NCBI RefSeq assembly: GCF_004138135.1
Contig: NZ_RYFD01000010.1
Coordinates: 1-64,000, forward strand
Length of the DNA stretch: 64,000 nt
Origin: Candidatus Oscillochloris fontis
GTDB lineage: Bacteria; Chloroflexota; Chloroflexia; Chloroflexales; Chloroflexaceae
Direction of reading: 5' to 3'
The notes beneath the pieces were generated by a model that saw only the letters and a list, made by a program, of their open reading frames with translations, did no database searches and had not been told where the DNA came from. Below, one piece after another: positions 54,560-64,000 of this stretch. A program made the position numbers and the translations under genes. Numbering within the stretch: position 1 is the stretch's first letter; every line of letters starts with the position of its first letter.

Positions 54560-57166
54560 TCAAATTTGGCGGTCACGGCGGTGCAATAACCATGCCGTGA
54601 TAGCGACACAGATCAGGCTATAAAGAATGAGCGCGGCCCAGCGTCCGAGCAGAGCTTCGGGGCTATGGGTAAAGCTGGATTCGACATCAAGGAAACTAGG
54701 CGAACAACCCGGCGGCACACTACCGGAGCTATCGGTATTGGGCAGATTGCACAGGCTATTGAGATCGACACTTATACCCAGTGCATCCATTGACCAGCGG
54801 CTAATCGTGAGCCACGAGAGCGGAGTGGACAAACCTTCGATCTTGAAGATCAGACCGGCGAAGAGGATCTGGGGGATCAGGGCTAACGGGACAATACTAA
54901 TCGCCCGATCACCACTATCGGAGGCGGCACTTATCACCAAGCCCAATGTCATGCCGGTGAGTGCGGTAAGCAGCAGGGTGATGAAGGTCTCGACCAAGGG
55001 CGGAAGGAAGAGGCCAGTATCGGCGGGGAGGTGGACTTTGAGCGCGACGAGACCGAGCAGAACGAGGGTCTGCATAAAGATGAGCGCACTCAGAACGGCC
55101 ACCTTGGAGAGCAGGTAGGGGCCGATGCGCAGATTGACCAGCCGTTCGCGCTGGAAGATCGGTAGCTCCTTGGTGATCTCACGTGCCGAGTTGATGATCC
55201 CGAACCAGACGCTGACGGTGGCGAGCATGAAGAGCACCTTCTTGGACTCACCGCGTTGGAGCAGATCAACCGCCTGGGCACCTGTGAGGGCGTCGGTGCG
55301 GGCGACAAGGAGGAGCAGCAACGCAATGATCGGAGCCTGAAGGAGCAGGATGAAGAGATTGCGGCGATCTTGGAGGGTCAGATCGAAATAACGGCGTGCC
55401 AAGATACCGAACTGGCGCAGTGGCGAAACGCGGTGCTTGGATTGGGGAGCCACCGCCGGTGCCGCCACCGGCACGGGTGCAGATTGCCCCAGACGATCCG
55501 CGACATAGCGCTGGTAGATGGGTGAAGCGCGATACTTGCGCTCCCAGAGTTCGGCCAAACTGGGTGACTCTTTCGCCGCCGGATTGGCCGTACTCCATGC
55601 CTGGTACTCGGCTTGCAGATCGCGCTGCACAATCGGATTCTGCGGGTCGGCTTGGCCTTCAAGCTTGGTATAAATATCGGCAAAATCGCCGCCCGTCACC
55701 TGGAAGAAGGTCAGTGCCTCGCTGGGTGGGCCAAAATAGACCATGCGCCCGGCAGCCATAAAGACGACGTGGTCGCACTGGGTGATGTTGGCAGTCGCGT
55801 GGGTGACAAGTACCACCGTGCGTCCGCTATCGGCAAGGCGGCGCAGGGTGTACATCATCTTCTTCTCAAGGCCAGGATCGAGACCACTGGTTGGCTCATC
55901 AAGGAAGAAGAGACTCGGATCGGCCAGCAGTTCAGCGGCGATACTGACACGCTTGCGCTGGCCACCAGAGAGGTTCTCGACCATCTTGTCGCGGTGGGGC
56001 GACATCTCGACATCTTCAAGCACACGGGTGATGCGGGCATCAATCTCGCTCTCGGCGGTATCGGCGGGCAGGCGCAGGCGGGCCGCATAGCCGAGGGCGC
56101 GGTTGACCGGCAGAGTACGGTGGAGGATGTCGTCCTGGGGCACATAGCCGAGCACGGTGCGGTAGGCATCGAAGTTGCGGTAGAAGTCATCGCCATTGAC
56201 CAAGACCTGACCGGTATTGGCGGGAACATAGCCACACAGCGCCTTCATCAGGGTACTCTTGCCGGTACCGCTACCGCCGACGAGCGCCACAAACTCACGC
56301 GGGGCAATACTGAGCGAGACATCATGCAGGATGGTGCGTTGCTGCCCGCCGCGTGCGACAGTACGAGATATGTTGCGGGCATCAATGCGTAGTGCGCCTT
56401 GCTGATCATACTGATCGAGGCTCTGGACGTTATAGATCAGCTTGAAGGAGCCGATCTGGATCACATCACCGGCGCAGAGGGTGTGGGGCGCGGTGAGGCG
56501 CTGGCCATTGACGAAGGTACCATTGGTGCTGCCAGCATCGCGCAGAATCGCCCCGGCAGCAGTGCGGTCTATCTGGGCGTGGAAGCGCGAGACCTGCGGA
56601 TTTTCGAGCACAATATCACAGCCAGCGCGCCCGATGGTAATCTGGGGATCATTGGGATCGAGGGGATAGCGCTGGGCAACCGTATTGGCCTGAGACGTGC
56701 GCAGCACCTCACCATTACGGTAGGTAAGGGTGACAAAACTTCCCGTAGCAGGGTCGCCAATCCGCAGCACATCGCCATCACAGAGATCGTGGCTGGTGAC
56801 GCGGCGACCCTCGAAGAGCAGGCCGTTTGTCGAGCCAACATCCACAATGCGATGGCCGGAAGCAAGCGGCTCGATACGGGCATGGTGGCCGCTGACAAAA
56901 CGCGAAGCCAGCACAAGATCATTATCGGGGGCACGGCCCAGCGTGATGGGAAGCGCCGTCAGGGGCAGCGTGAGCACCTGGCCCTCTTCTTGCACCTGCA
57001 AGACGGCACCCAAACCAATCGTGGCCATGGTGGGTTGCGCACCCTGCTTACTGGTACCCGCCTGGGAGGTGGGTTGGGGCTTGCCACAAGCCGTACAGAA
57101 GCGTGCGTCAGAACGACTGAGCGGTGCTTGACAGTGAACACAGCGAGCAGAAGATGGAGACGACAC
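54560..57166 (-). CDS. Zinc-ribbon FHA-FHA ABC transporter (ATPase-permease fusion)
   Basis: 868 residues in order: zinc ribbon (CVHC at about 9 and CTAC at about 28), FHA 1 (about 55-135: LGRAPDNDLVLASRFVSGHHARI and DVGSTNGLLFEG), FHA 2 (about 165-245: IGRAGCDIVLENPQVSRFHAQI, DAGSTNGTFVNG), ABC ATPase (Walker A GGSGTGKST, signature LSGGQRKRVSIA, Walker B LFFLDEPTSGLDP) and an ABC-2-type permease with six helices (about 590-860). The FHAs bind phosphothreonine, so export is likely controlled by the kinase and phosphatases encoded next to it. It is divergent from the phosphatase gene. Confidence 0.9.
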   Translation of the reverse strand: MSSPSSARCVHCQAPLSRSDARFCTACGKPQPTSQAGTSKQGAQPTMATIGLGAVLQVQEEGQVLTLPLTALPITLGRAPDNDLVLASRFVSGHHARIEPLASGHRIVDVGSTNGLLFEGRRVTSHDLCDGDVLRIGDPATGSFVTLTYRNGEVLRTSQANTVAQRYPLDPNDPQITIGRAGCDIVLENPQVSRFHAQIDRTAAGAILRDAGSTNGTFVNGQRLTAPHTLCAGDVIQIGSFKLIYNVQSLDQYDQQGALRIDARNISRTVARGGQQRTILHDVSLSIAPREFVALVGGSGTGKSTLMKALCGYVPANTGQVLVNGDDFYRNFDAYRTVLGYVPQDDILHRTLPVNRALGYAARLRLPADTAESEIDARITRVLEDVEMSPHRDKMVENLSGGQRKRVSIAAELLADPSLFFLDEPTSGLDPGLEKKMMYTLRRLADSGRTVVLVTHATANITQCDHVVFMAAGRMVYFGPPSEALTFFQVTGGDFADIYTKLEGQADPQNPIVQRDLQAEYQAWSTANPAAKESPSLAELWERKYRASPIYQRYVADRLGQSAPVPVAAPAVAPQSKHRVSPLRQFGILARRYFDLTLQDRRNLFILLLQAPIIALLLLLVARTDALTGAQAVDLLQRGESKKVLFMLATVSVWFGIINSAREITKELPIFQRERLVNLRIGPYLLSKVAVLSALIFMQTLVLLGLVALKVHLPADTGLFLPPLVETFITLLLTALTGMTLGLVISAASDSGDRAISIVPLALIPQILFAGLIFKIEGLSTPLSWLTISRWSMDALGISVDLNSLCNLPNTDSSGSVPPGCSPSFLDVESSFTHSPEALLGRWAALILYSLICVAITAWLLHRRDRQI

Positions 57167-57183
57167 GCGAGCGGCTCCTATGC

Positions 57184-57189
57184 TATAAT
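57184..57189 (+). promoter_or_regulatory. -10 element of the phosphatase-kinase operon
   Basis: TATAAT in TGCTATAATTTGG (extended -10), 70 bases before the TTG start of the PP2C gene and 18 bases beyond the start of the divergent FHA-ABC gene, whose control region it must share. Confidence 0.5.
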
Positions 57190-57259
57190 TTGGTTGGCCC
57201 CGATCTACACCCCTTTAGATAGCACAGGTTGTGCGAGATTGCAACCGATTGAGGCTTGT

Positions 57260-58519
57260 TTGACCACACCGGGCTCTCAGAAGTGCGCTACCTGCGGCGG
57301 GCTGATCGGACACGGATCGCGTTTCTGTCCGCGCTGCGGGGCACCTACACCAGACGATGTTGTCGCTGAGGAGATTCTGCTCCCCGGTTCACGGCGGGTG
57401 CGTGTCTCAGCAGACAGCCTGAGTTTGCGTGAACTGCTCGCCATCGTTGAATCGGGAGTCTTCTACTGGCGCCAACGGCTCGCAGAGAGCGAGGGCGTGG
57501 CGCGCACCGAAGCGGCTGCGGCGCTCCAGGATCTCTCACGCATCCTCGACAGTTTGGCGCAGCAGTTGGTGGCCGGGCGCGAGACGGTACGGATCACCTC
57601 GCGACTACCAAGCATGCGCAATGCGCAGCGTGCCTGTGCCATCTGTGGGCGCGGCAACCGCAGCAATGCCAAGTTCTGCATTGCATGTGGTGCAGCGCTA
57701 CGCCCTGGCAACCGTGCTACCCCACCTCCTCCACCCGAAATCCGCGTGACTGTCGCCGCACGCAGTGATGTCGGCATGGTGCGCAAGATCAATGAAGACA
57801 CCTACTATAGTGGTGAGTTTACGACGGTTGATGGCAGCATCGGCACCTTACTGCTCGTCGCCGATGGCATGGGTGGGCACCAATCGGGCGAGGTAGCCTC
57901 GCAACTCGCTGCCGAGACGGTCAAGATGGTGCTAGGGCAGGGATTGAGCCAGGAAGTACCGAGTGATGATGCGGGATGGCACGCTTTGTTACGTCACGCG
58001 GTACTAACCGCCAATGAGCGCATTTACCAACAATCACGGAGCCAGGCAGGGCGGAGCATGGGCACCACCCTCACCATCGCGCTGATTACGGAACGGCGGG
58101 CGCACATCGCGCATGTGGGCGACAGCCGAGCGTATCTGATCAATGCGGCAGGCGTGGGGGAGGAACATGGAACCTGGGTACAACTGACCAGCGACCACAG
58201 TTTAGTGGCGCGGTTGGTGGATATCGGGCAACTCACCCCCGAACAGGCACGGATACACCCACAGCGCAACATGATCTACCGTTCGTTGGGAACTGATCCC
58301 AATCTGGAGGTTGATCTCTTCAGCCAAGCGCTGGCCCTCGGCGACACGCTGCTGCTCTGCTCGGATGGCCTGGACACCCATGTTGAGGATGCCGAGATCG
58401 CCCAGATCGTGCTAGAGGAAGTGAGCGAGATACGGGCATGTGAAGACCTGATTGCCCTTGCCAACCAGCGCGGGGGTAAAGACAATATCAGTGTCGTGAT
58501 TGCACGGATACGCGCCTAG
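57260..58519 (+). CDS. Zinc-ribbon PP2C protein phosphatase
   Basis: 419 residues from TTG 57260 (GAGG 5 nt upstream). Zinc ribbon 1 at 9-26 (CATC, CPRC), a helical linker (about 50-125), zinc ribbon 2 (CAICGRGNRSNAKFCIAC, about 130-150), then a PP2C domain with RSDVGMVRKINEDTYY, VADGMGGHQSGEVAS, GTTLTIALI, HVGDSRAYLI, LTSDHSLVARLVDIGQL, LLCSDGLDTHVEDAEI and GGKDNISVVIARI. The Asp/Gly metal ligands are all there. It should remove phosphates placed by the kinase at 60332. The frame continues far upstream but is antisense to the FHA-ABC gene. Confidence 0.88.
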   Translation: MTTPGSQKCATCGGLIGHGSRFCPRCGAPTPDDVVAEEILLPGSRRVRVSADSLSLRELLAIVESGVFYWRQRLAESEGVARTEAAAALQDLSRILDSLAQQLVAGRETVRITSRLPSMRNAQRACAICGRGNRSNAKFCIACGAALRPGNRATPPPPPEIRVTVAARSDVGMVRKINEDTYYSGEFTTVDGSIGTLLLVADGMGGHQSGEVASQLAAETVKMVLGQGLSQEVPSDDAGWHALLRHAVLTANERIYQQSRSQAGRSMGTTLTIALITERRAHIAHVGDSRAYLINAAGVGEEHGTWVQLTSDHSLVARLVDIGQLTPEQARIHPQRNMIYRSLGTDPNLEVDLFSQALALGDTLLLCSDGLDTHVEDAEIAQIVLEEVSEIRACEDLIALANQRGGKDNISVVIARIRA

Positions 58520-58538
58520 AGAAGACAAAGGAACGGGT

Positions 58539-60311
58539 ATGCGACGCTGCGATACATGTGGCAAAGAGAATCGCGAGAGTGCAAACTTCTGCTGGAACTG
58601 TGCCACACCCCTGCCCGTTTTTCAACCCAAGGAATCGGATCGGCAATGGCTGGCCCAGAGTCTGACGAACATCCCCAACACAAGATCCCCCAATGATATT
58701 ACCGCGCCGCTGAACGCGCAGAACATTCCTGCACGCAGCCGTGACGCCCAGGAGGATATGATGCATGATGAGAATCCCCCCACCCACCGCCTCTTCGCCG
58801 GGCGCTATGAGATCCCCACTGATGCACCCCCCGGCCCAGTGACGGTGTTGGACACCAATCCGTGGCGACGCTGTTGGGCGTGTGGTTCGGGCGGTAACGA
58901 TGAGGGCGAGTCCTACTGTATGGACTGTGGAGCGGCCCTGGAGCAGCGCAGCTATCCGGCCTATCTAAGCCAGAGTAGCGACCTGAGCGGCCCAGCCTTG
59001 ATCCCCAATCTCACCGCCACATTGCCCCAAGATCTGCTGCCGGAGTTGATCGATCAGGTACAAGAAGGTGAAGCGACGCTCACAGTGCTCAACGACAGCG
59101 GGCGCGGCGCGATCACCCCACCGATTGAGGAGATCCTGGCTTTGGGGGTCGGAGCAACCCTGGCCCACCTGTTGGTGGATCTGCATGCTGCGGGGCTGGC
59201 ATTGGGCAAACTTAGCCCCGCCAACCTTGAGGCGCTCGCCGCCGGGAAGACCCGCTTGCGCGATGCACCCGGCCTGCGCCATGTTGAAGTGGAGATGCAG
59301 CCCGCCGCCTTCCAGAGCGATCTGGCCGATTTAGCCGAGTTGTTGGAGCAACTGACGGCCACCCCACGCACCACCCAGCGCCTTGATGAAGACGAAGCCG
59401 TCGTGGCGACTGATGTAGAAGCGGGGAGTCTGATCCAGGTCTTGCGTGATGTGCGCACCGGGGGGATCGCAACAGCCCACGACCTTGCCGAACGGCTCCA
59501 GAGCATCCTAGACGAGCGCACCCGCCCGGCCAGCCTGCGCCAGATTGTCGGTGCCCATACCGATGTCGGGATTGTACGTGACCATAACGAGGATAGTTAC
59601 CTGACCTTGCAACTGGATCTCAACAACAATAGCCAAGCTCAGGGCTGGGGCATCTATATTGTCTCGGATGGCATGGGTGGCCACGCAGCCGGTGAAGTCG
59701 CGAGTAGTTTGGCCATCCGCAGTGCGGCTGAGTTGCTGATCGGTGCCTATATGGCCACGGCGGTGCGCCCCGATACCATCTATGACGAGGCCCATGCGCG
59801 CACGTTGGTGCGGCAGGCGATTCAGCAGGCCAACGAGGCGATCATTGCCGAGGGACGCAGCCAGGGTAACGATATGGGCGCGACGATCACTATGGCCTTG
59901 GTGTCGGGGGATCGGGCGATTATCGGCAACGTCGGCGATAGTCGCACGTATCTCTATCGGGACGGCAAACTATGTCGAATCAGCAAGGATCACTCGTTAG
60001 TCATGCGGTTGGTTGAATTGGGCCAGATCAATGACGATGAGATCTACACCCACCCGCAACGCAACGCGGTGTTGCGTTCACTAGGCGACAAATCGAATGT
60101 TGAAGTGGACATCTTCAGTGAGCGGTTGCGCCCCGGTGATGCGCTCCTACTCTGTTCGGATGGGCAGTGGGAGATGACCCGCGATGTTGAGATTGAACGC
60201 ATCCTAAGTCGGGAAGCGAATCCGCAGTCCACCTGCGAGGCTCTGGTGGCCGCCGCCAACCAAGCCGGTGGCGAAGATAATATTGCCTCGGTGCTGGTGC
60301 GGTTTGCCTAA
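58539..60311 (+). CDS. PP2C phosphatase fused to pseudokinase-like region
   Basis: 590 residues. Zinc ribbon (CDTC...CWNC, 4-21), Pro-rich stretch, second zinc ribbon (CWACGSGGNDEGESYCMDC, about 112-130). A region at about 165-320 reads like a kinase C-lobe without catalytic residues: LLVDLHAAGLALGKLSPANLEAL sits where LHxxGIxHxDLxPxNIL is expected, followed by FQSDLADLAELLEQL. It ends with a PP2C domain (NEDSYLTLQLD, VSDGMGGHAAGEVAS, NVGDSRTYLYRD, DHSLVMRLVELGQI, GGEDNIASVLV). ATG 58539 has AAGGAA upstream. The pseudokinase reading is an inference. Confidence 0.85.
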   Translation: MRRCDTCGKENRESANFCWNCATPLPVFQPKESDRQWLAQSLTNIPNTRSPNDITAPLNAQNIPARSRDAQEDMMHDENPPTHRLFAGRYEIPTDAPPGPVTVLDTNPWRRCWACGSGGNDEGESYCMDCGAALEQRSYPAYLSQSSDLSGPALIPNLTATLPQDLLPELIDQVQEGEATLTVLNDSGRGAITPPIEEILALGVGATLAHLLVDLHAAGLALGKLSPANLEALAAGKTRLRDAPGLRHVEVEMQPAAFQSDLADLAELLEQLTATPRTTQRLDEDEAVVATDVEAGSLIQVLRDVRTGGIATAHDLAERLQSILDERTRPASLRQIVGAHTDVGIVRDHNEDSYLTLQLDLNNNSQAQGWGIYIVSDGMGGHAAGEVASSLAIRSAAELLIGAYMATAVRPDTIYDEAHARTLVRQAIQQANEAIIAEGRSQGNDMGATITMALVSGDRAIIGNVGDSRTYLYRDGKLCRISKDHSLVMRLVELGQINDDEIYTHPQRNAVLRSLGDKSNVEVDIFSERLRPGDALLLCSDGQWEMTRDVEIERILSREANPQSTCEALVAAANQAGGEDNIASVLVRFA

Positions 60312-60331
60312 ATAGACATTCACGGAATACT

Positions 60332-61684
60332 ATGAACTGTCCCAACTGTAACGTCCAACTCCCCGATGATACCGCCTTCTGCCCCAACTGTGGGCGGCGG
60401 ATCGGTACGTCGTCGCAGGTACTCCGCACCCTTCAGGATCGCTACGAACTGACCAAAAAGCTCGGTCAGGGTGGCATGGGGTCGGTCTATCTCGCTGCCG
60501 ACCGGCGGCTGAGCACGGTACGCTGGGCAGTCAAGGAGATGAGTGACGCGGCGATCACGTCGCCGCTAGAGCGCCAGCAGGCCGGAGACGCCTTCCGCCA
60601 AGAGGCCGAGTTACTGGCGCGTTTGAGCCACCCCAATCTGCCACGGGTGACCGATCACTTTGAGGAGGATGGCAAGAACTACTTGGTGATGGAGTTTGTG
60701 CCGGGTGAGAGCCTGCTCGACTACTGCCAGCGCAATCCGTTACCACGCCCGTTGAACGAAGTGCTGGGGTGGGTGGGGCAGATCTGTGATGTGTTGAGCT
60801 ACCTGCACAACCAGCGTCCGCCGGTGATCTTCCGCGACCTCAAACCGGCCAACATCATTCTTACCCCTGATGGCACACTCAAACTGATTGACTTCGGGAT
60901 CGCCCGGCTCTTCAAGCCGGGGCAGAACCGCGACACCCAGGCGTATGGCACGATGGGCTACAGTGCCCCGGAGCAGTATGGGCGCGGGCAGACCGATGCG
61001 CGTTCGGACATTTATAGCCTGGGGGTATTGTTACACCAACTCCTAACCGGCTTTGACCCATCCGCCGCGCCCTTCCGCCTGCCCCCGGCAAGCCAAGTCA
61101 ACCCGAACATTCCCGCCGGTATCTCCGCTGCCCTCGAACGCGCCACCAACAACGACCCAGAGCAGCGCTTTGGGAGTGTGGAGGAGTTGCGCCAATCCCT
61201 GCTCGGTTCGGGGCAACTTGTCCAGCGTGCGGTCACGAGCCAACCCCAGATCGCGGCCTCACTGGGCATCCCTCCCACCACCACCCCAGCGCCGCCCGTT
61301 GGCGGGATGGCCACATCCACCGACCTCGCCCGGACGGCATTCTGGATGGGCGTGGTCAGTGCGGGGATGATGTTACTAGCAGCCATCCTAGTTGGTATCG
61401 GAGCAGCCAGCGGCGATAAAGATAGTGGCTTAGCCTCAATCGGTATTCTATTCGCCCTACTCCCCATGCTCACCGGCCCATCAAGCGCGATTGTGGGCAT
61501 CGTGGCGCTCACCCGCCCCCAGACGCGCAACACCAGCCAGGGGCGACGTGATGCGATAGTGGGGATCACGGCGGGGCTATCAACCTTGCTGCTCTGTTGT
61601 GTCGTCCTTGTGCTTATGCCAAGTAGCGACGACGATCCAGAAACCCATCTGCTGCAACCTGTAGCCCATATCATATCGTCATAG
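60332..61684 (+). CDS. Zinc-ribbon serine/threonine protein kinase
   Basis: 450 residues. N-terminal zinc ribbon (CPNCNVQLPDDTAFCPNC, 3-20). Kinase domain about 38-300: GQGGMGSVY (glycine loop), Lys68 in WAVKEM, RDLKPAN with catalytic Asp169 (the usual HRD is FRD), DFG at 187-189, and APEQYGRGQTDARSDIYSLG. A Pro/Thr linker then leads to three membrane helices near the C-terminus (about 335-440). It is the likely writer for the FHA domains and the target of the PP2Cs. It begins 20 bases after the previous gene. Confidence 0.92.
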   Translation: MNCPNCNVQLPDDTAFCPNCGRRIGTSSQVLRTLQDRYELTKKLGQGGMGSVYLAADRRLSTVRWAVKEMSDAAITSPLERQQAGDAFRQEAELLARLSHPNLPRVTDHFEEDGKNYLVMEFVPGESLLDYCQRNPLPRPLNEVLGWVGQICDVLSYLHNQRPPVIFRDLKPANIILTPDGTLKLIDFGIARLFKPGQNRDTQAYGTMGYSAPEQYGRGQTDARSDIYSLGVLLHQLLTGFDPSAAPFRLPPASQVNPNIPAGISAALERATNNDPEQRFGSVEELRQSLLGSGQLVQRAVTSQPQIAASLGIPPTTTPAPPVGGMATSTDLARTAFWMGVVSAGMMLLAAILVGIGAASGDKDSGLASIGILFALLPMLTGPSSAIVGIVALTRPQTRNTSQGRRDAIVGITAGLSTLLLCCVVLVLMPSSDDDPETHLLQPVAHIISS

Positions 61685-61747
61685 TGGCAGTTTACGGAGC
61701 CGATGATTCCGTGTATGGCGCATCAATCTAGCGTATTGGAGACAGAC

Positions 61748-62992
61748 ATGGCTGATGCAGTCACCCTCACCTGCACATGGGGACGATCCCCAATGCCAGT
61801 AACCGGATCACCCCAGGTGGCCTACCTGCTGGTTGAAGCAACCCCCGTGGCGGCACCGCCAGTACCCGTCCCGCTCAATTTTTGCCTCGTACTGGATCGC
61901 TCCGGCTCGATGCAGGGGGCCAAACTCCAGAGCATGAAGGCGGCCACCCGCAAGGTGATCGAGACCCTCACTGAACAGGACGTGGTCTCGATTGTAATCT
62001 TCGATGATACCGTACAGACCCTCGTGCCGGCCACACTCGCCACCGACCGGGCGGCGTTACTGGCGGCGATTGATACGATCAGCGAAGCGGGCGGGACGGC
62101 CATGTCATTGGGGATACAGGCGGGCCAGACGGAGCTTCAGAAACATCTGGGGCCAGATCGGCTCAGCCATATGCTGGTGCTCACGGATGGGCAGACCTGG
62201 GGTGATGAAGAGACGTGCCGCAATATTGCCCGTTCGCTGGGCCAAGCCAACGTGCGCATCACCGCATTAGGTTTGGGGGCGGAGTGGAATGAGCAACTAC
62301 TTGACGATCTGGCCGAATTTAGCGATGGCAATTCCGACTATATCGCCGACCCCAACCAGATCGGAACCTTCTTCCAGCGGGCGGTACGTAGTGCCCAGGG
62401 CACCGCCGCCACCGATGCGCGGCTGCTGTTGCGCTTAGTGCGCGAAGCAACGCCGCGTGCGGTCTACCGAGCCACCCCGACGATCAGTAACTTGGGCTAC
62501 CAACCGATTGGTGAGAATGAGGTTTCGGTACGCCTTGGTGATCTGGTCTATGGCCAGACCGCGAGTGTCATTCTTGACATGATGCTCCCCAACCGATCCA
62601 GTGGTTCATTCCGGATCGCCCAAGCCGAACTGCATCTGGCGCTGATCGGGGTCGAACCGGAACAGGTGATCAAACAGGATGTGCTGCTGAGTTTCACCGC
62701 TGATCCAGCCACACCTGCCTTTGAACCACGGGTTATGAATCTTGTCGAAAAGGTCACCGCCTTTAAGCTCCAGACCCGCGCCTTGGCCGAGGCGGAATTG
62801 GGCAACACCAGCGGCGCAACCCAAAAGCTACGCGCAGCGGCCACACGGCTGCTTGACCTAGGCGAACTCGATCTGGCCGAAAAGACCCGCCAGCAGGCCG
62901 ACCAATTGGAGCAAGGCCAGCAACTCAGTGCCGAGACGCAGAAAGAGTTGAAGTATGCGACGCGGCGACTCACCCAGAAGCTTGAGGAATAA
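61748..62992 (+). CDS. VWA-domain protein
   Basis: 414 residues. N-terminal beta strands, a VWA domain (about 42-230) with the metal-dependent adhesion site DRSGS (50-54), a Thr at TAMSLGI and DGQTW later, then a beta-sandwich domain and a charged helical tail (AEKTRQQADQLEQ). The fold is that of the YfbK/TerY-like cytosolic VWA proteins. GGAGA lies 5 nt before ATG 61748; an ATG at 61703 is possible. It belongs to the kinase operon. Confidence 0.88.
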   Translation: MADAVTLTCTWGRSPMPVTGSPQVAYLLVEATPVAAPPVPVPLNFCLVLDRSGSMQGAKLQSMKAATRKVIETLTEQDVVSIVIFDDTVQTLVPATLATDRAALLAAIDTISEAGGTAMSLGIQAGQTELQKHLGPDRLSHMLVLTDGQTWGDEETCRNIARSLGQANVRITALGLGAEWNEQLLDDLAEFSDGNSDYIADPNQIGTFFQRAVRSAQGTAATDARLLLRLVREATPRAVYRATPTISNLGYQPIGENEVSVRLGDLVYGQTASVILDMMLPNRSSGSFRIAQAELHLALIGVEPEQVIKQDVLLSFTADPATPAFEPRVMNLVEKVTAFKLQTRALAEAELGNTSGATQKLRAAATRLLDLGELDLAEKTRQQADQLEQGQQLSAETQKELKYATRRLTQKLEE

Positions 62993-63004
62993 GGAGAGAG
63001 CGCG

Positions 63005-64000
63005 ATGATCACCTGCCCAACCTGCGGTGTCCAGAACGATCCGGGCAACCGTTTCTGCGATCAGTGCGGCACACGCCTCGACATCCCACCGGTAACCCCA
63101 GCGATGGTACCATCCGACCAGCCGACCGTTACGGCGACGGTGTGCCCCAAATGTGGTGATCCGATTTTGCCGGGCGAAGCGTTTTGCGACAGTTGCGGGG
63201 CTGATTTGAGTACCGCAGCGCTGCCGGTGGCTACGCCGGTTCCGGCTGATGCCCCCACAATGCTGGCGGCACCACCTGTCAGTGTGCCTACGCCTGCACC
63301 GACGCCCGCACCCAGCACCCAAGAGCCACGCTGCCCCGCCTGCGGGCAACCCAACCTGCCCGGCGAGGCATTCTGCGATCATTGTGGAGCCAGTTTGAAT
63401 GCGCCGGTTCCGGCGGCGGCACCCACAATCCCCGATTCCATGCCGATCATTGCGCCAGATGACGCGACCATCCTGGCCCCTATGCCGGTCACTCCTACAG
63501 CGATGCCAGCGGTAGAGGTGCAGCCAGATGATGCAACCATCGTTGCCTCGGTGGCGGTACCCGAACCAGCCCCGGAGCCGGTGGCGGTACCCGAACCAGC
63601 CCCGGAGCCGGTGGCGGTACCCGAACCAGCCCCGGAGCCGGTGGCGGTACCCGAACCAGCCCCGGAGCCGGTGGCGGTACCCGAACCAACCCCGGAGCCG
63701 GTGGCAGTTGCCAGCGCTGATCCGGCGGCCCAGGCGGCGCAAAAGGCAGAGATCGAGGCCGAGATTGGGCGCCAGCAACAGATCATTGCCCAGTTCGAGC
63801 AGATGCAGGCCATGTTCGGTGCCACCACACCACCCGCCGTGATTACCGGGTTGGATGAGGCGCGGGTTGCGTTGGCCAAGGCGCAGGCGGATCTGGATGC
63901 GCTGGTACCGGCTGCTCCAGCCGTTGATCCAGAAGTATTGAAGCAACTCGCAGCCGAGATTGGGCGCCAGCAGCAGATCATCGCCCAGTTCGAGCAGATG
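63005..64000 (+). CDS. Triple zinc-ribbon coiled-coil protein, 3' end cut by window edge
   Basis: The frame from ATG 63005 is open to base 64000 (332 codons, no stop). Three zinc ribbons: CPTC...CDQC (4-21), CPKC...CDSC (about 43-60) and CPAC...CDHC (about 107-124). A linker with five VAVPEPAPEP repeats (last one PTPEP) covers about residues 183-232. Then a helical part in which EIGRQQQIIAQFEQM occurs twice, about 65 residues apart, the second running off the window. It has GGAG-type sequence before the start and follows the VWA gene by 12 bases. A scaffold for the module is a reasonable guess; no catalytic domain is seen. Confidence 0.8.
   Translation, partial: MITCPTCGVQNDPGNRFCDQCGTRLDIPPVTPAMVPSDQPTVTATVCPKCGDPILPGEAFCDSCGADLSTAALPVATPVPADAPTMLAAPPVSVPTPAPTPAPSTQEPRCPACGQPNLPGEAFCDHCGASLNAPVPAAAPTIPDSMPIIAPDDATILAPMPVTPTAMPAVEVQPDDATIVASVAVPEPAPEPVAVPEPAPEPVAVPEPAPEPVAVPEPAPEPVAVPEPTPEPVAVASADPAAQAAQKAEIEAEIGRQQQIIAQFEQMQAMFGATTPPAVITGLDEARVALAKAQADLDALVPAAPAVDPEVLKQLAAEIGRQQQIIAQFEQM
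63551..63700 (+). repeat. Five tandem 30-bp repeats in the zinc-ribbon gene
   Basis: Unit GTGGCGGTACCCGAACCAGC plus CCCGGAGCCG, five copies, the first four identical and the fifth with one base changed (Ala to Thr). Encodes VAVPEPAPEP. Near-perfect identity suggests recent slippage expansion. Confidence 0.9.

What the first reader, a model, noticed from the sequence alone, without database searches (positions are those of the whole stretch)
54560..64000. Zinc-ribbon phosphosignalling module linked to an FHA-controlled ABC exporter
Six adjacent genes encode FHA-FHA-ABC transporter, PP2C, PP2C-pseudokinase, Ser/Thr kinase, VWA and a triple zinc-ribbon protein, and all but the VWA protein carry at least one N-terminal zinc ribbon. 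vWA, PP2C and kinase triads are known from TerY-P loci (Anantharaman, Iyer and Aravind analyses), but adding an FHA-bearing ABC-2 exporter and two different PP2Cs makes an unusual complete write, read, erase and export set. A plausible model is phosphothreonine-gated export of an unknown molecule.
Basis: partly seen in the sequence, partly recalled or inferred. Interest (0 to 1): 0.75.

Follow-up and report, generated by a model that had tools for sequence, protein, structure and literature searches.

The report
Bacterial ArnAB-like phospho-switch beside exporter
Next to a membrane pump gene, this filamentous bacterium carries a complete protein-phosphorylation switch (kinase, two phosphatases and phosphate-reading proteins) whose core gene pair is the bacterial counterpart of the ArnA-ArnB switch that controls swimming in Sulfolobus archaea, and the same pair recurs in several other bacterial phyla.

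Summary
The six genes are real and intact. The sixth is not just a triple zinc ribbon: past the window end it runs into two coiled coils and an FHA domain. Five genes form a tight co-directional run; the exporter is divergent. Two findings change the reading. (1) The VWA protein and the zinc-ribbon-FHA protein behind it are bacterial counterparts of the archaeal ArnB-ArnA pair. The VWA model (pLDDT 91) matches ArnB (8S05) over its whole length (Z 33.4), and profiles of the two proteins return ArnB and ArnA as best solved-structure hits. The pair is conserved from Chloroflexota to Nitrospirota (co-occurrence p 1e-12, 10 of 11 directly adjacent), Latescibacterota and Zixibacteria. (2) The FHA-FHA-ABC exporter, built like M. 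tuberculosis Rv1747, is a facultative but recurrent partner. It is divergent beside the module in Oscillochloris and Chloroflexus, beside phosphatase-kinase-ZnR-FHA alone in Herpetosiphon, in-line in Anaerolineae, distant in Roseiflexus and absent from Chloroploca. Most likely mechanism: kinase phosphorylates threonines, FHA domains read them, PP2Cs erase them, the VWA protein is the docking hub, and the exporter is one output. Export control and the hub role are inferred. It is not a TerY-P triad.

The parts
54560..57166 (-). FHA-FHA-ABC-ABC2 half-transporter (ABCG-like) with one N-terminal zinc ribbon; Rv1747-like layout; divergent from the rest
   Evidence: Pfam FHA x2 3e-37, ABC_tran 9e-30, ABC2_membrane 1.5e-17; NCBIfam best TIGR00955; Walker A/B, signature and both FHA motifs intact
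57260..58519 (+). PP2C phosphatase 'PPa' with two N-terminal zinc ribbons (TTG start likely)
   Evidence: NF033484 Stp1/IreP 244 bits, over its 230 cut-off; catalytic residues intact
58539..60311 (+). 'PPb': two zinc ribbons, degenerate kinase C-lobe (pseudokinase), C-terminal active-type PP2C
   Evidence: (PP2C Z 33 to tPphA)
60332..61684 (+). Ser/Thr kinase with N-terminal zinc ribbon and hydrophobic C-terminus
   Evidence: Pkinase 2.4e-44; GxGGMG, K, FRDLKPAN, DFG, APE intact; lost, not relocated, in several relatives
61748..62992 (+). VWA protein, ArnB-like: beta-sandwich split by a MIDAS-type vWA, plus C-terminal helix bundle
   Evidence: 8S05 chain A 4.6e-24; pLDDT 91.1, pTM 0.88; Z 33.4 to ArnB
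63005..64000 (+). ArnA-like protein: three zinc ribbons, Thr-motif linker, two coiled coils, FHA; stops at 64516 beyond the window (503 aa, L001:9005-10516)
63116..63560 (+). linker stretches with repeated Thr motif ([DE]-A-P-T-[VMI]-[IL]-A type: QPTVT, DAPTML, AAPTIP, DDATIL, DDATIV), candidate phospho-acceptors; approximate bounds
57167..57259 (.). 93-bp divergent intergenic region between exporter and PPa with one sigma-70-like match on the + strand

Best explanation
A threonine-phosphorylation switch built around a bacterial counterpart of archaeal ArnA-ArnB. The VWA protein (ArnB-like) is the hub, and the zinc-ribbon-FHA protein (ArnA-like) docks on it by a ribbon and then, once threonines are phosphorylated, by its FHA domain. 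The ribbon-bearing, probably membrane-anchored kinase writes; likely acceptors are the repeated [DE]-A-P-T-[VMI]-[IL]-A motifs in the ZnR-FHA linker, the Thr near FHA1 of the exporter, and conserved Thr of the VWA helix bundle (T358, T366, T405, T409). The two PP2Cs erase; one carries a pseudokinase that may sense or dock. Where the FHA-FHA-ABC exporter is present, its FHA domains bind the same marks, so assembly and activity of an ABCG-type envelope exporter follow the phosphorylation state, as in the Rv1747/PknF/PstP system. Shown here: gene content, intact active sites, conserved linkage, and ArnA/ArnB homology by profile and fold. Inferred: who phosphorylates whom, ribbon docking, and control of export.
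For: VWA profile: best PDB hit is ArnB 8S05_A (4.6e-24), with a weaker second stretch over the beta-sandwich and C-terminal bundle. AF model has ArnB topology and aligns to 8S05_A over 370 residues (Z 33.4) and vWA2 5A8J (Z 27.4), while vWA-only proteins align about 175 residues at Z 22-23. ZnR-FHA profile: best PDB hits are ArnA 8S05_C (4.8e-15) and 5A8I (1.7e-14), matching both zinc finger and FHA. The two genes are adjacent across phyla; in Nitrospirota they co-occur in 11 genomes (VWA 13/118, zFHA 12/118; p 9.6e-13), 10 of 11 at 56-179 bp. In archaea ArnC phosphorylates ArnB, the FHA of ArnA then binds, and PP2A reverses it (PMC12852372, PMC6509490, PMC7472852). Exporter: recurrent linkage, 8 label changes on the tree against 13.8 shuffled, 0 of 500 as low; Herpetosiphon keeps exporter | PPa-kinase-ZnR-FHA without VWA; 14 of 20 exporter loci not chosen for the module have a kinase, PP2C or ZnR-FHA nearby. 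Thr motif: T-[VIML] 107 against 66 +/- 6.4 shuffled, 0 of 500; strict motif in 14/14 loci with the kinase and 4/13 without, and the kinase is lost rather than moved.
Against: No experiment. The exporter is absent from complete Chloroploca genomes that keep the module, and far from it in Roseiflexaceae. Roughly half of Chloroflexaceae loci lack the kinase, so another kinase must write there. The Thr motif was defined after looking and is confined to Chloroflexales; only 3 independent tree pairs exist, too few for a test. No Pfam C-terminal ArnB family was reported at E <= 1. Sequence identity to ArnB is only about 15%. ZnR-VWA docking could not be modelled (no complex prediction).
Confidence: 0.55

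Rival explanations
1. Rv1747-type reading: the exporter is the main client. Kinase and PP2C switch export by phosphorylating the FHA-bearing N-terminus; VWA and ZnR-FHA are accessories.
For: Same FHA-FHA-NBD-TMD layout and ABCG similarity as Rv1747, which forms an operon with kinase PknF and clusters on phosphorylation, reversed by PstP. Herpetosiphon keeps exporter + PPa + kinase + ZnR-FHA together without VWA. Many Chloroflexota exporters abut a kinase.
Against: The module persists where the exporter is missing or remote. The best conserved unit across phyla is PP2C-VWA-ZnR-FHA, without exporter. The long acceptor linker between the FHA domains of Rv1747 is lacking.
Confidence: 0.25
2. The switch controls something else (for example nutrient or stress gene regulation, as ArnAB does in Sulfolobus); the neighbouring exporter is incidental or a bystander kept by a shared promoter region.
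For: Exporter facultative; ArnAB controls motility in archaea; paralogous kinase-PP2C-VWA-ZnR-FHA locus in the same genome has no exporter.
Against: Exporter linkage recurs in different arrangements and lineages, more clustered than shuffles.
Confidence: 0.17
3. A TerY-P triad: metal-sensing or defence-linked VWA-PP2C-kinase switch.
For: Same three enzyme classes, MIDAS VWA and zinc ribbons.
Against: No meaningful similarity to YegL or PphC; ribbon N-terminal, not C-terminal; VWA has ArnB architecture; PADLOC hits are generic kinase/PP2C models; no restriction or Ter genes recognised among the genes listed around it.
Confidence: 0.03

Closest known systems
ArnA-ArnB of Sulfolobus acidocaldarius (8S05, 5A8I, 5A8J; PMC6509490, PMC12852372)
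   Same: Adjacent genes; VWA protein with vWA-split beta-sandwich plus C-terminal helix bundle; partner with CxxC-x10-CxxC zinc finger plus FHA; dedicated Ser/Thr kinase and phosphatase.
   Different: Bacterial; about 15% identity; kinase and PP2Cs (not PP2A) are in the same gene run; three ribbons, Thr-motif linker and coiled coils in the ArnA-like protein; exporter alongside; no archaellum.
Rv1747-PknF-PstP of M. tuberculosis (PMC3908365, PMC9312465, PMC5549992)
   Same: FHA-FHA-NBD-TMD ABCG half-transporter next to a Ser/Thr kinase gene.
   Different: Extra N-terminal zinc ribbon; short FHA-FHA linker; PP2Cs, VWA and ZnR-FHA adaptor in the same locus; divergent orientation.
TerY-P triad (Anantharaman et al. 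2012, described in PMC11090510)
   Same: VWA, PP2C, Ser/Thr kinase and zinc ribbon together.
   Different: VWA of another build, ribbon at the other end of the kinase, FHA reader proteins added, no defence or Ter context seen.
Type VI secretion threonine-phosphorylation pathway PpkA-PppA-Fha (established knowledge; PMC3953482, PMC5995506 listed)
   Same: Kinase, PP2C, VWA and FHA used as a post-translational gate on an export machine.
   Different: No type VI genes recognised among the listed neighbours; VWA is a separate protein; output is an ABC exporter.

Membership tests
ArnA-ArnB-type pair | vWA inserted in a beta-sandwich, followed by a C-terminal helix bundle | tested here: met
   AF model and 8S05_A Z 33.4, 370 aligned
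ArnA-ArnB-type pair | partner protein with C4 zinc finger plus FHA | tested here: met
   profile A6 (other phyla) best hit ArnA, finger and FHA both matched; same architecture in the window protein
ArnA-ArnB-type pair | the two genes adjacent | tested here: met
   12 bp apart here; conserved across phyla
ArnA-ArnB-type pair | intact MIDAS DxSxS..T..D | tested here: met
ArnA-ArnB-type pair | match to the ArnB C-terminal sequence family (IPR040929) | tested here: inconclusive
   not reported in Pfam at E <= 1 for any of 25 members; presence of that model in the library not checked
ArnA-ArnB-type pair | kinase-dependent tight complex through FHA | not testable with these tools
   needs proteins
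Rv1747-type exporter | FHA-FHA-NBD-TMD, ABCG-like | tested here: met
Rv1747-type exporter | long disordered linker between the two FHA domains | tested here: not met
   FHA1 motifs at 77-115, FHA2 starts at 176; only a short stretch between the domains
Rv1747-type exporter | adjacent Ser/Thr kinase | tested here: met
   in the locus here; abutting in several other lineages
TerY-P triad | TerY-like VWA | tested here: not met
   YegL E 0.010 over 28 residues; ArnB build
TerY-P triad | kinase with C-terminal zinc ribbon | tested here: not met
   ribbon at residues 3-22, kinase 38-245
Stp1/PrpC-type PP2C | NCBIfam NF033484 cut-off 230 bits | tested here: met
   PPa 244 bits; PPb 228.6, just below

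The most novel reading that the evidence does not exclude
The zinc ribbon is a shared docking tag and the VWA protein is its receptor. That would explain why every protein of the locus except the VWA carries an N-terminal CxxC-x10-CxxC ribbon: all five dock on one ArnB-like hub, at the site where the ArnA finger sits in 8S05, and are assembled or released by phosphorylation. The hub shares its core fold with the COPII proteins Sec23/Sec24, so a ribbon-plus-hub assembly of this kind would predate eukaryotic coats and be common in bacteria.
Probability: 0.3. Interest if true: 0.85.

Novelty: new variant of a known kind. Interest (0 to 1): 0.7.

Why it matters
ArnA-ArnB has been studied as an archaeal motility regulator. 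Recent work noted ArnB-shaped proteins in bacteria (Catenulispora, E. coli YfbK), but the papers I found do not describe the ArnB-ArnA gene pair together with its own kinase and phosphatases in bacteria. Finding it as a conserved unit across several bacterial phyla makes the switch testable in bacteria (Chloroflexus, Herpetosiphon), where writer, readers and erasers are named by position. It also links two separately studied themes, ArnAB complexes and FHA-gated ABC exporters.

Tried and rejected
TerY-P reading: rejected after direct comparison with E. coli YegL and PphC and by ribbon position and VWA build. Defence system: PADLOC hits are generic kinase/PP2C models. Six-gene set as one fixed operon: rejected; exporter divergent and facultative, kinase often lost. 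Exporter accident: made unlikely by recurrence. General Thr motif for all phyla: rejected; absent from Anaerolineae and Nitrospirota ZnR-FHA linkers. Kinase-motif correlation as proof: not accepted, too few independent pairs. Whole-protein fold search of PPb returned only PP2C rows, so the pseudokinase was settled by profile comparison. The single-sequence FHA search gave only weak general FHA hits. Literature searches for this exact cluster found nothing closer; most subscription papers are not held.
Full report
WHAT IS THERE. The window is G000:C37:1-64000, a 4.46 Mb genome whose nearest named relatives by the VWA protein are Oscillochloris. Six genes stand at the stated place. On the minus strand lies an exporter: zinc ribbon, two FHA domains, ABC ATPase and ABC-2 membrane domain, best matched by ABCG-type transporters. 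Divergent from it, 93 bp away, run five plus-strand genes 12-63 bp apart: PP2C 'PPa' with two ribbons; 'PPb' with two ribbons, a pseudokinase and a PP2C; a kinase with one ribbon; a VWA protein; and a protein with three ribbons. The last gene is cut by the window end. Read on in the genome it is 503 aa and ends in two coiled-coil repeats and an FHA domain. Active-site motifs are intact in the kinase, both PP2Cs, the MIDAS, the ATPase and the three FHA domains. The pseudokinase is a degenerate kinase domain (hhalign 97.7%, E 1.4e-12 against the neighbouring kinase family) without HRD or DFG.

THE VWA AND ZnR-FHA PROTEINS ARE AN ArnB/ArnA-LIKE PAIR. The best solved-structure match of the VWA profile is chain A of 8S05, ArnB of Sulfolobus acidocaldarius (4.6e-24), with a weaker second stretch over the beta-sandwich and C-terminal bundle. 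The AlphaFold model (pLDDT 91.1, pTM 0.88) shows a beta-sandwich interrupted by the vWA domain and a C-terminal four-helix bundle, the ArnB topology described in PMC12852372. VIA-align gives Catenulispora 4FX5 Z 38.2, ArnB Z 33.4 (370 residues, 15% identity) and vWA2 Z 27.4; ordinary vWA domains follow at Z 22-23 over about 175 residues. Foldseek also lists Sec23/Sec24, in line with the 8S05 title. Independently, a profile of the short ZnR-FHA proteins that follow the VWA gene in other phyla has ArnA as its two best PDB hits (8S05_C 4.8e-15, 5A8I 1.7e-14), matching both finger and FHA. The ribbon in PPb also hits the ArnA finger first (3.9e-4). In Sulfolobus the genes are adjacent (Saci_1210/1211). 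The finger binds ArnB in the unphosphorylated state; kinase ArnC phosphorylates the helix bundle, the FHA then binds, and PP2A dissolves the complex.

CONSERVATION. In Chloroflexaceae and Roseiflexaceae the order PPa-PPb-(kinase)-VWA-ZnR-FHA holds in nearly every locus with enough contig; two small-locus genomes keep only VWA and ZnR-FHA. Outside the order, in Anaerolineae, Nitrospirota, Latescibacterota, Zixibacteria and MAGs labelled Planctomycetota and Bacteroidetes, the VWA gene is followed by a ZnR-FHA gene in nearly all loci long enough, usually with PP2C upstream and a kinase nearby. Strict counting gives 24 of 28; three of the four exceptions show a ZnR-FHA whose stop-to-stop frame begins further upstream. 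In a Nitrospirota sample of 118 genomes the VWA occurs in 13 and the ZnR-FHA in 12, both in 11 (p 9.6e-13); 10 of the 11 have them 56-179 bp apart and the other has both on different contigs. In six distant genomes the best ZnR-FHA of the whole genome is the one beside the VWA. The window genome has a paralogous kinase-PP2C-VWA-ZnR-FHA locus on contig C98. Herpetosiphonaceae keep PPb and VWA together but without a ZnR-FHA next to them.

THE EXPORTER. It sits divergently beside the module in Oscillochloris, Viridilinea and Chloroflexus, but lies 1.47 Mb away in one Roseiflexaceae genome and is absent from complete Chloroploca genomes that keep the module. In Anaerolineae it stands in line within the cluster (L149, L153, L155, L156, L161, L138; Pfam-confirmed for L149). 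On a 41-row VWA tree the adjacency label needs 8 changes against 13.8 for shuffled labels, none of 500 as low; supported branches force at least 4. In Herpetosiphon aurantiacus the exporter is divergent from PPa (41% identity), the kinase orthologue (59%) and a ZnR-FHA (FHA part 51%), while PPb and VWA are elsewhere. So the Oscillochloris locus looks like two sub-modules interleaved: exporter-PPa-kinase-ZnR-FHA, and PPb-VWA. Of 20 exporter loci fetched away from the module, 11 have a kinase within about 10 kb (expected 14% per locus from the window genome's kinase density, p 1.7e-5) and 14 have a kinase, PP2C or FHA neighbour. Rv1747-PknF is the experimental precedent for such pairing.

CANDIDATE PHOSPHO-ACCEPTORS. 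The linker of the ZnR-FHA protein holds repeats of a motif [DE]-A-P-T-[VMIL]-[IL]-A-P, up to 12 in tandem in one Chloroflexaceae relative (G035). T followed by V/I/M/L is enriched over composition (107 against 66 +/- 6.4, none of 500 shuffles). A T-hydrophobic pair also lies between ribbon and first FHA in the exporters next to the module, though that linker is otherwise unalignable. The strict motif is in 14 of 14 loci with the kinase and 4 of 13 without, where no close orthologue of the kinase remains elsewhere. The motif was chosen after inspection, related genomes are not independent, and only 3 independent tree pairs exist, so this is a lead. In the VWA helix bundle T366 and T405 are invariant and T358 and T409 nearly so in 25 divergent sequences; ArnB is phosphorylated in the corresponding domain, though conserved helix Thr may also be structural.

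MECHANISM. Shown: a complete set of intact parts in conserved linkage, and ArnA/ArnB-type homology of the core pair. Inferred: the kinase writes on the linker, exporter and VWA threonines; FHA domains read; the PP2Cs erase; the VWA protein is the hub. The hub idea explains why every protein except the VWA carries an ArnA-type ribbon. The segments of the VWA that correspond to the ArnA-finger site (beta1-beta2 loop; start of the helix bundle, M330-A345) are rich in invariant residues, but FC..CG ribbons are common, so this remains a hypothesis. Control of export follows Rv1747 by analogy and is facultative across lineages.

VERDICT.

Noticed in passing
G000 contig C98:107488-112643 (L053:6488-11643): Second, paralogous module in the same genome: kinase (716 aa), PP2C, VWA (33% to the window VWA), ZnR-FHA (185 aa), co-directional and overlapping, no exporter.
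   Followed up: partly
G000 contig C65 (L063:2209-17419): Third phospho-signalling cluster: VWA, FHA, kinase, PP2C, VWA-FHA fusion, FHA.
   Followed up: no
L152, L157, L160, L162, L163, L166: Nitrospirota version: after VWA and ZnR-FHA comes an FHA-VWA-FHA fusion protein (771-960 aa), then a kinase.
   Followed up: partly
L149:13712-15751: Kinase next to the exporter in an Anaerolinea MAG is fused to LysM and a sulfatase-modifying-factor domain.
   Followed up: no
L126-L132, L134, L136: Herpetosiphonaceae-type loci carry two VWA paralogues in tandem after PPb and no neighbouring ZnR-FHA; recalls the vWA2 gene beside arnA/arnB in Sulfolobus.
   Followed up: partly
L172:5382-8657, L170:14399-16027: In Roseiflexaceae the exporter has as neighbour a ZnR-FHA protein of another type, with a transmembrane segment and a long extracytoplasmic part.
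   Followed up: no
L169:13075-14682: Herpetosiphon orthologue of the kinase has tandem SSQPYGQ-like repeats in its linker.
   Followed up: no
G000 whole genome: 33 Ser/Thr kinase matches and 22 FHA domain matches in a 4.46 Mb genome.
   Followed up: partly
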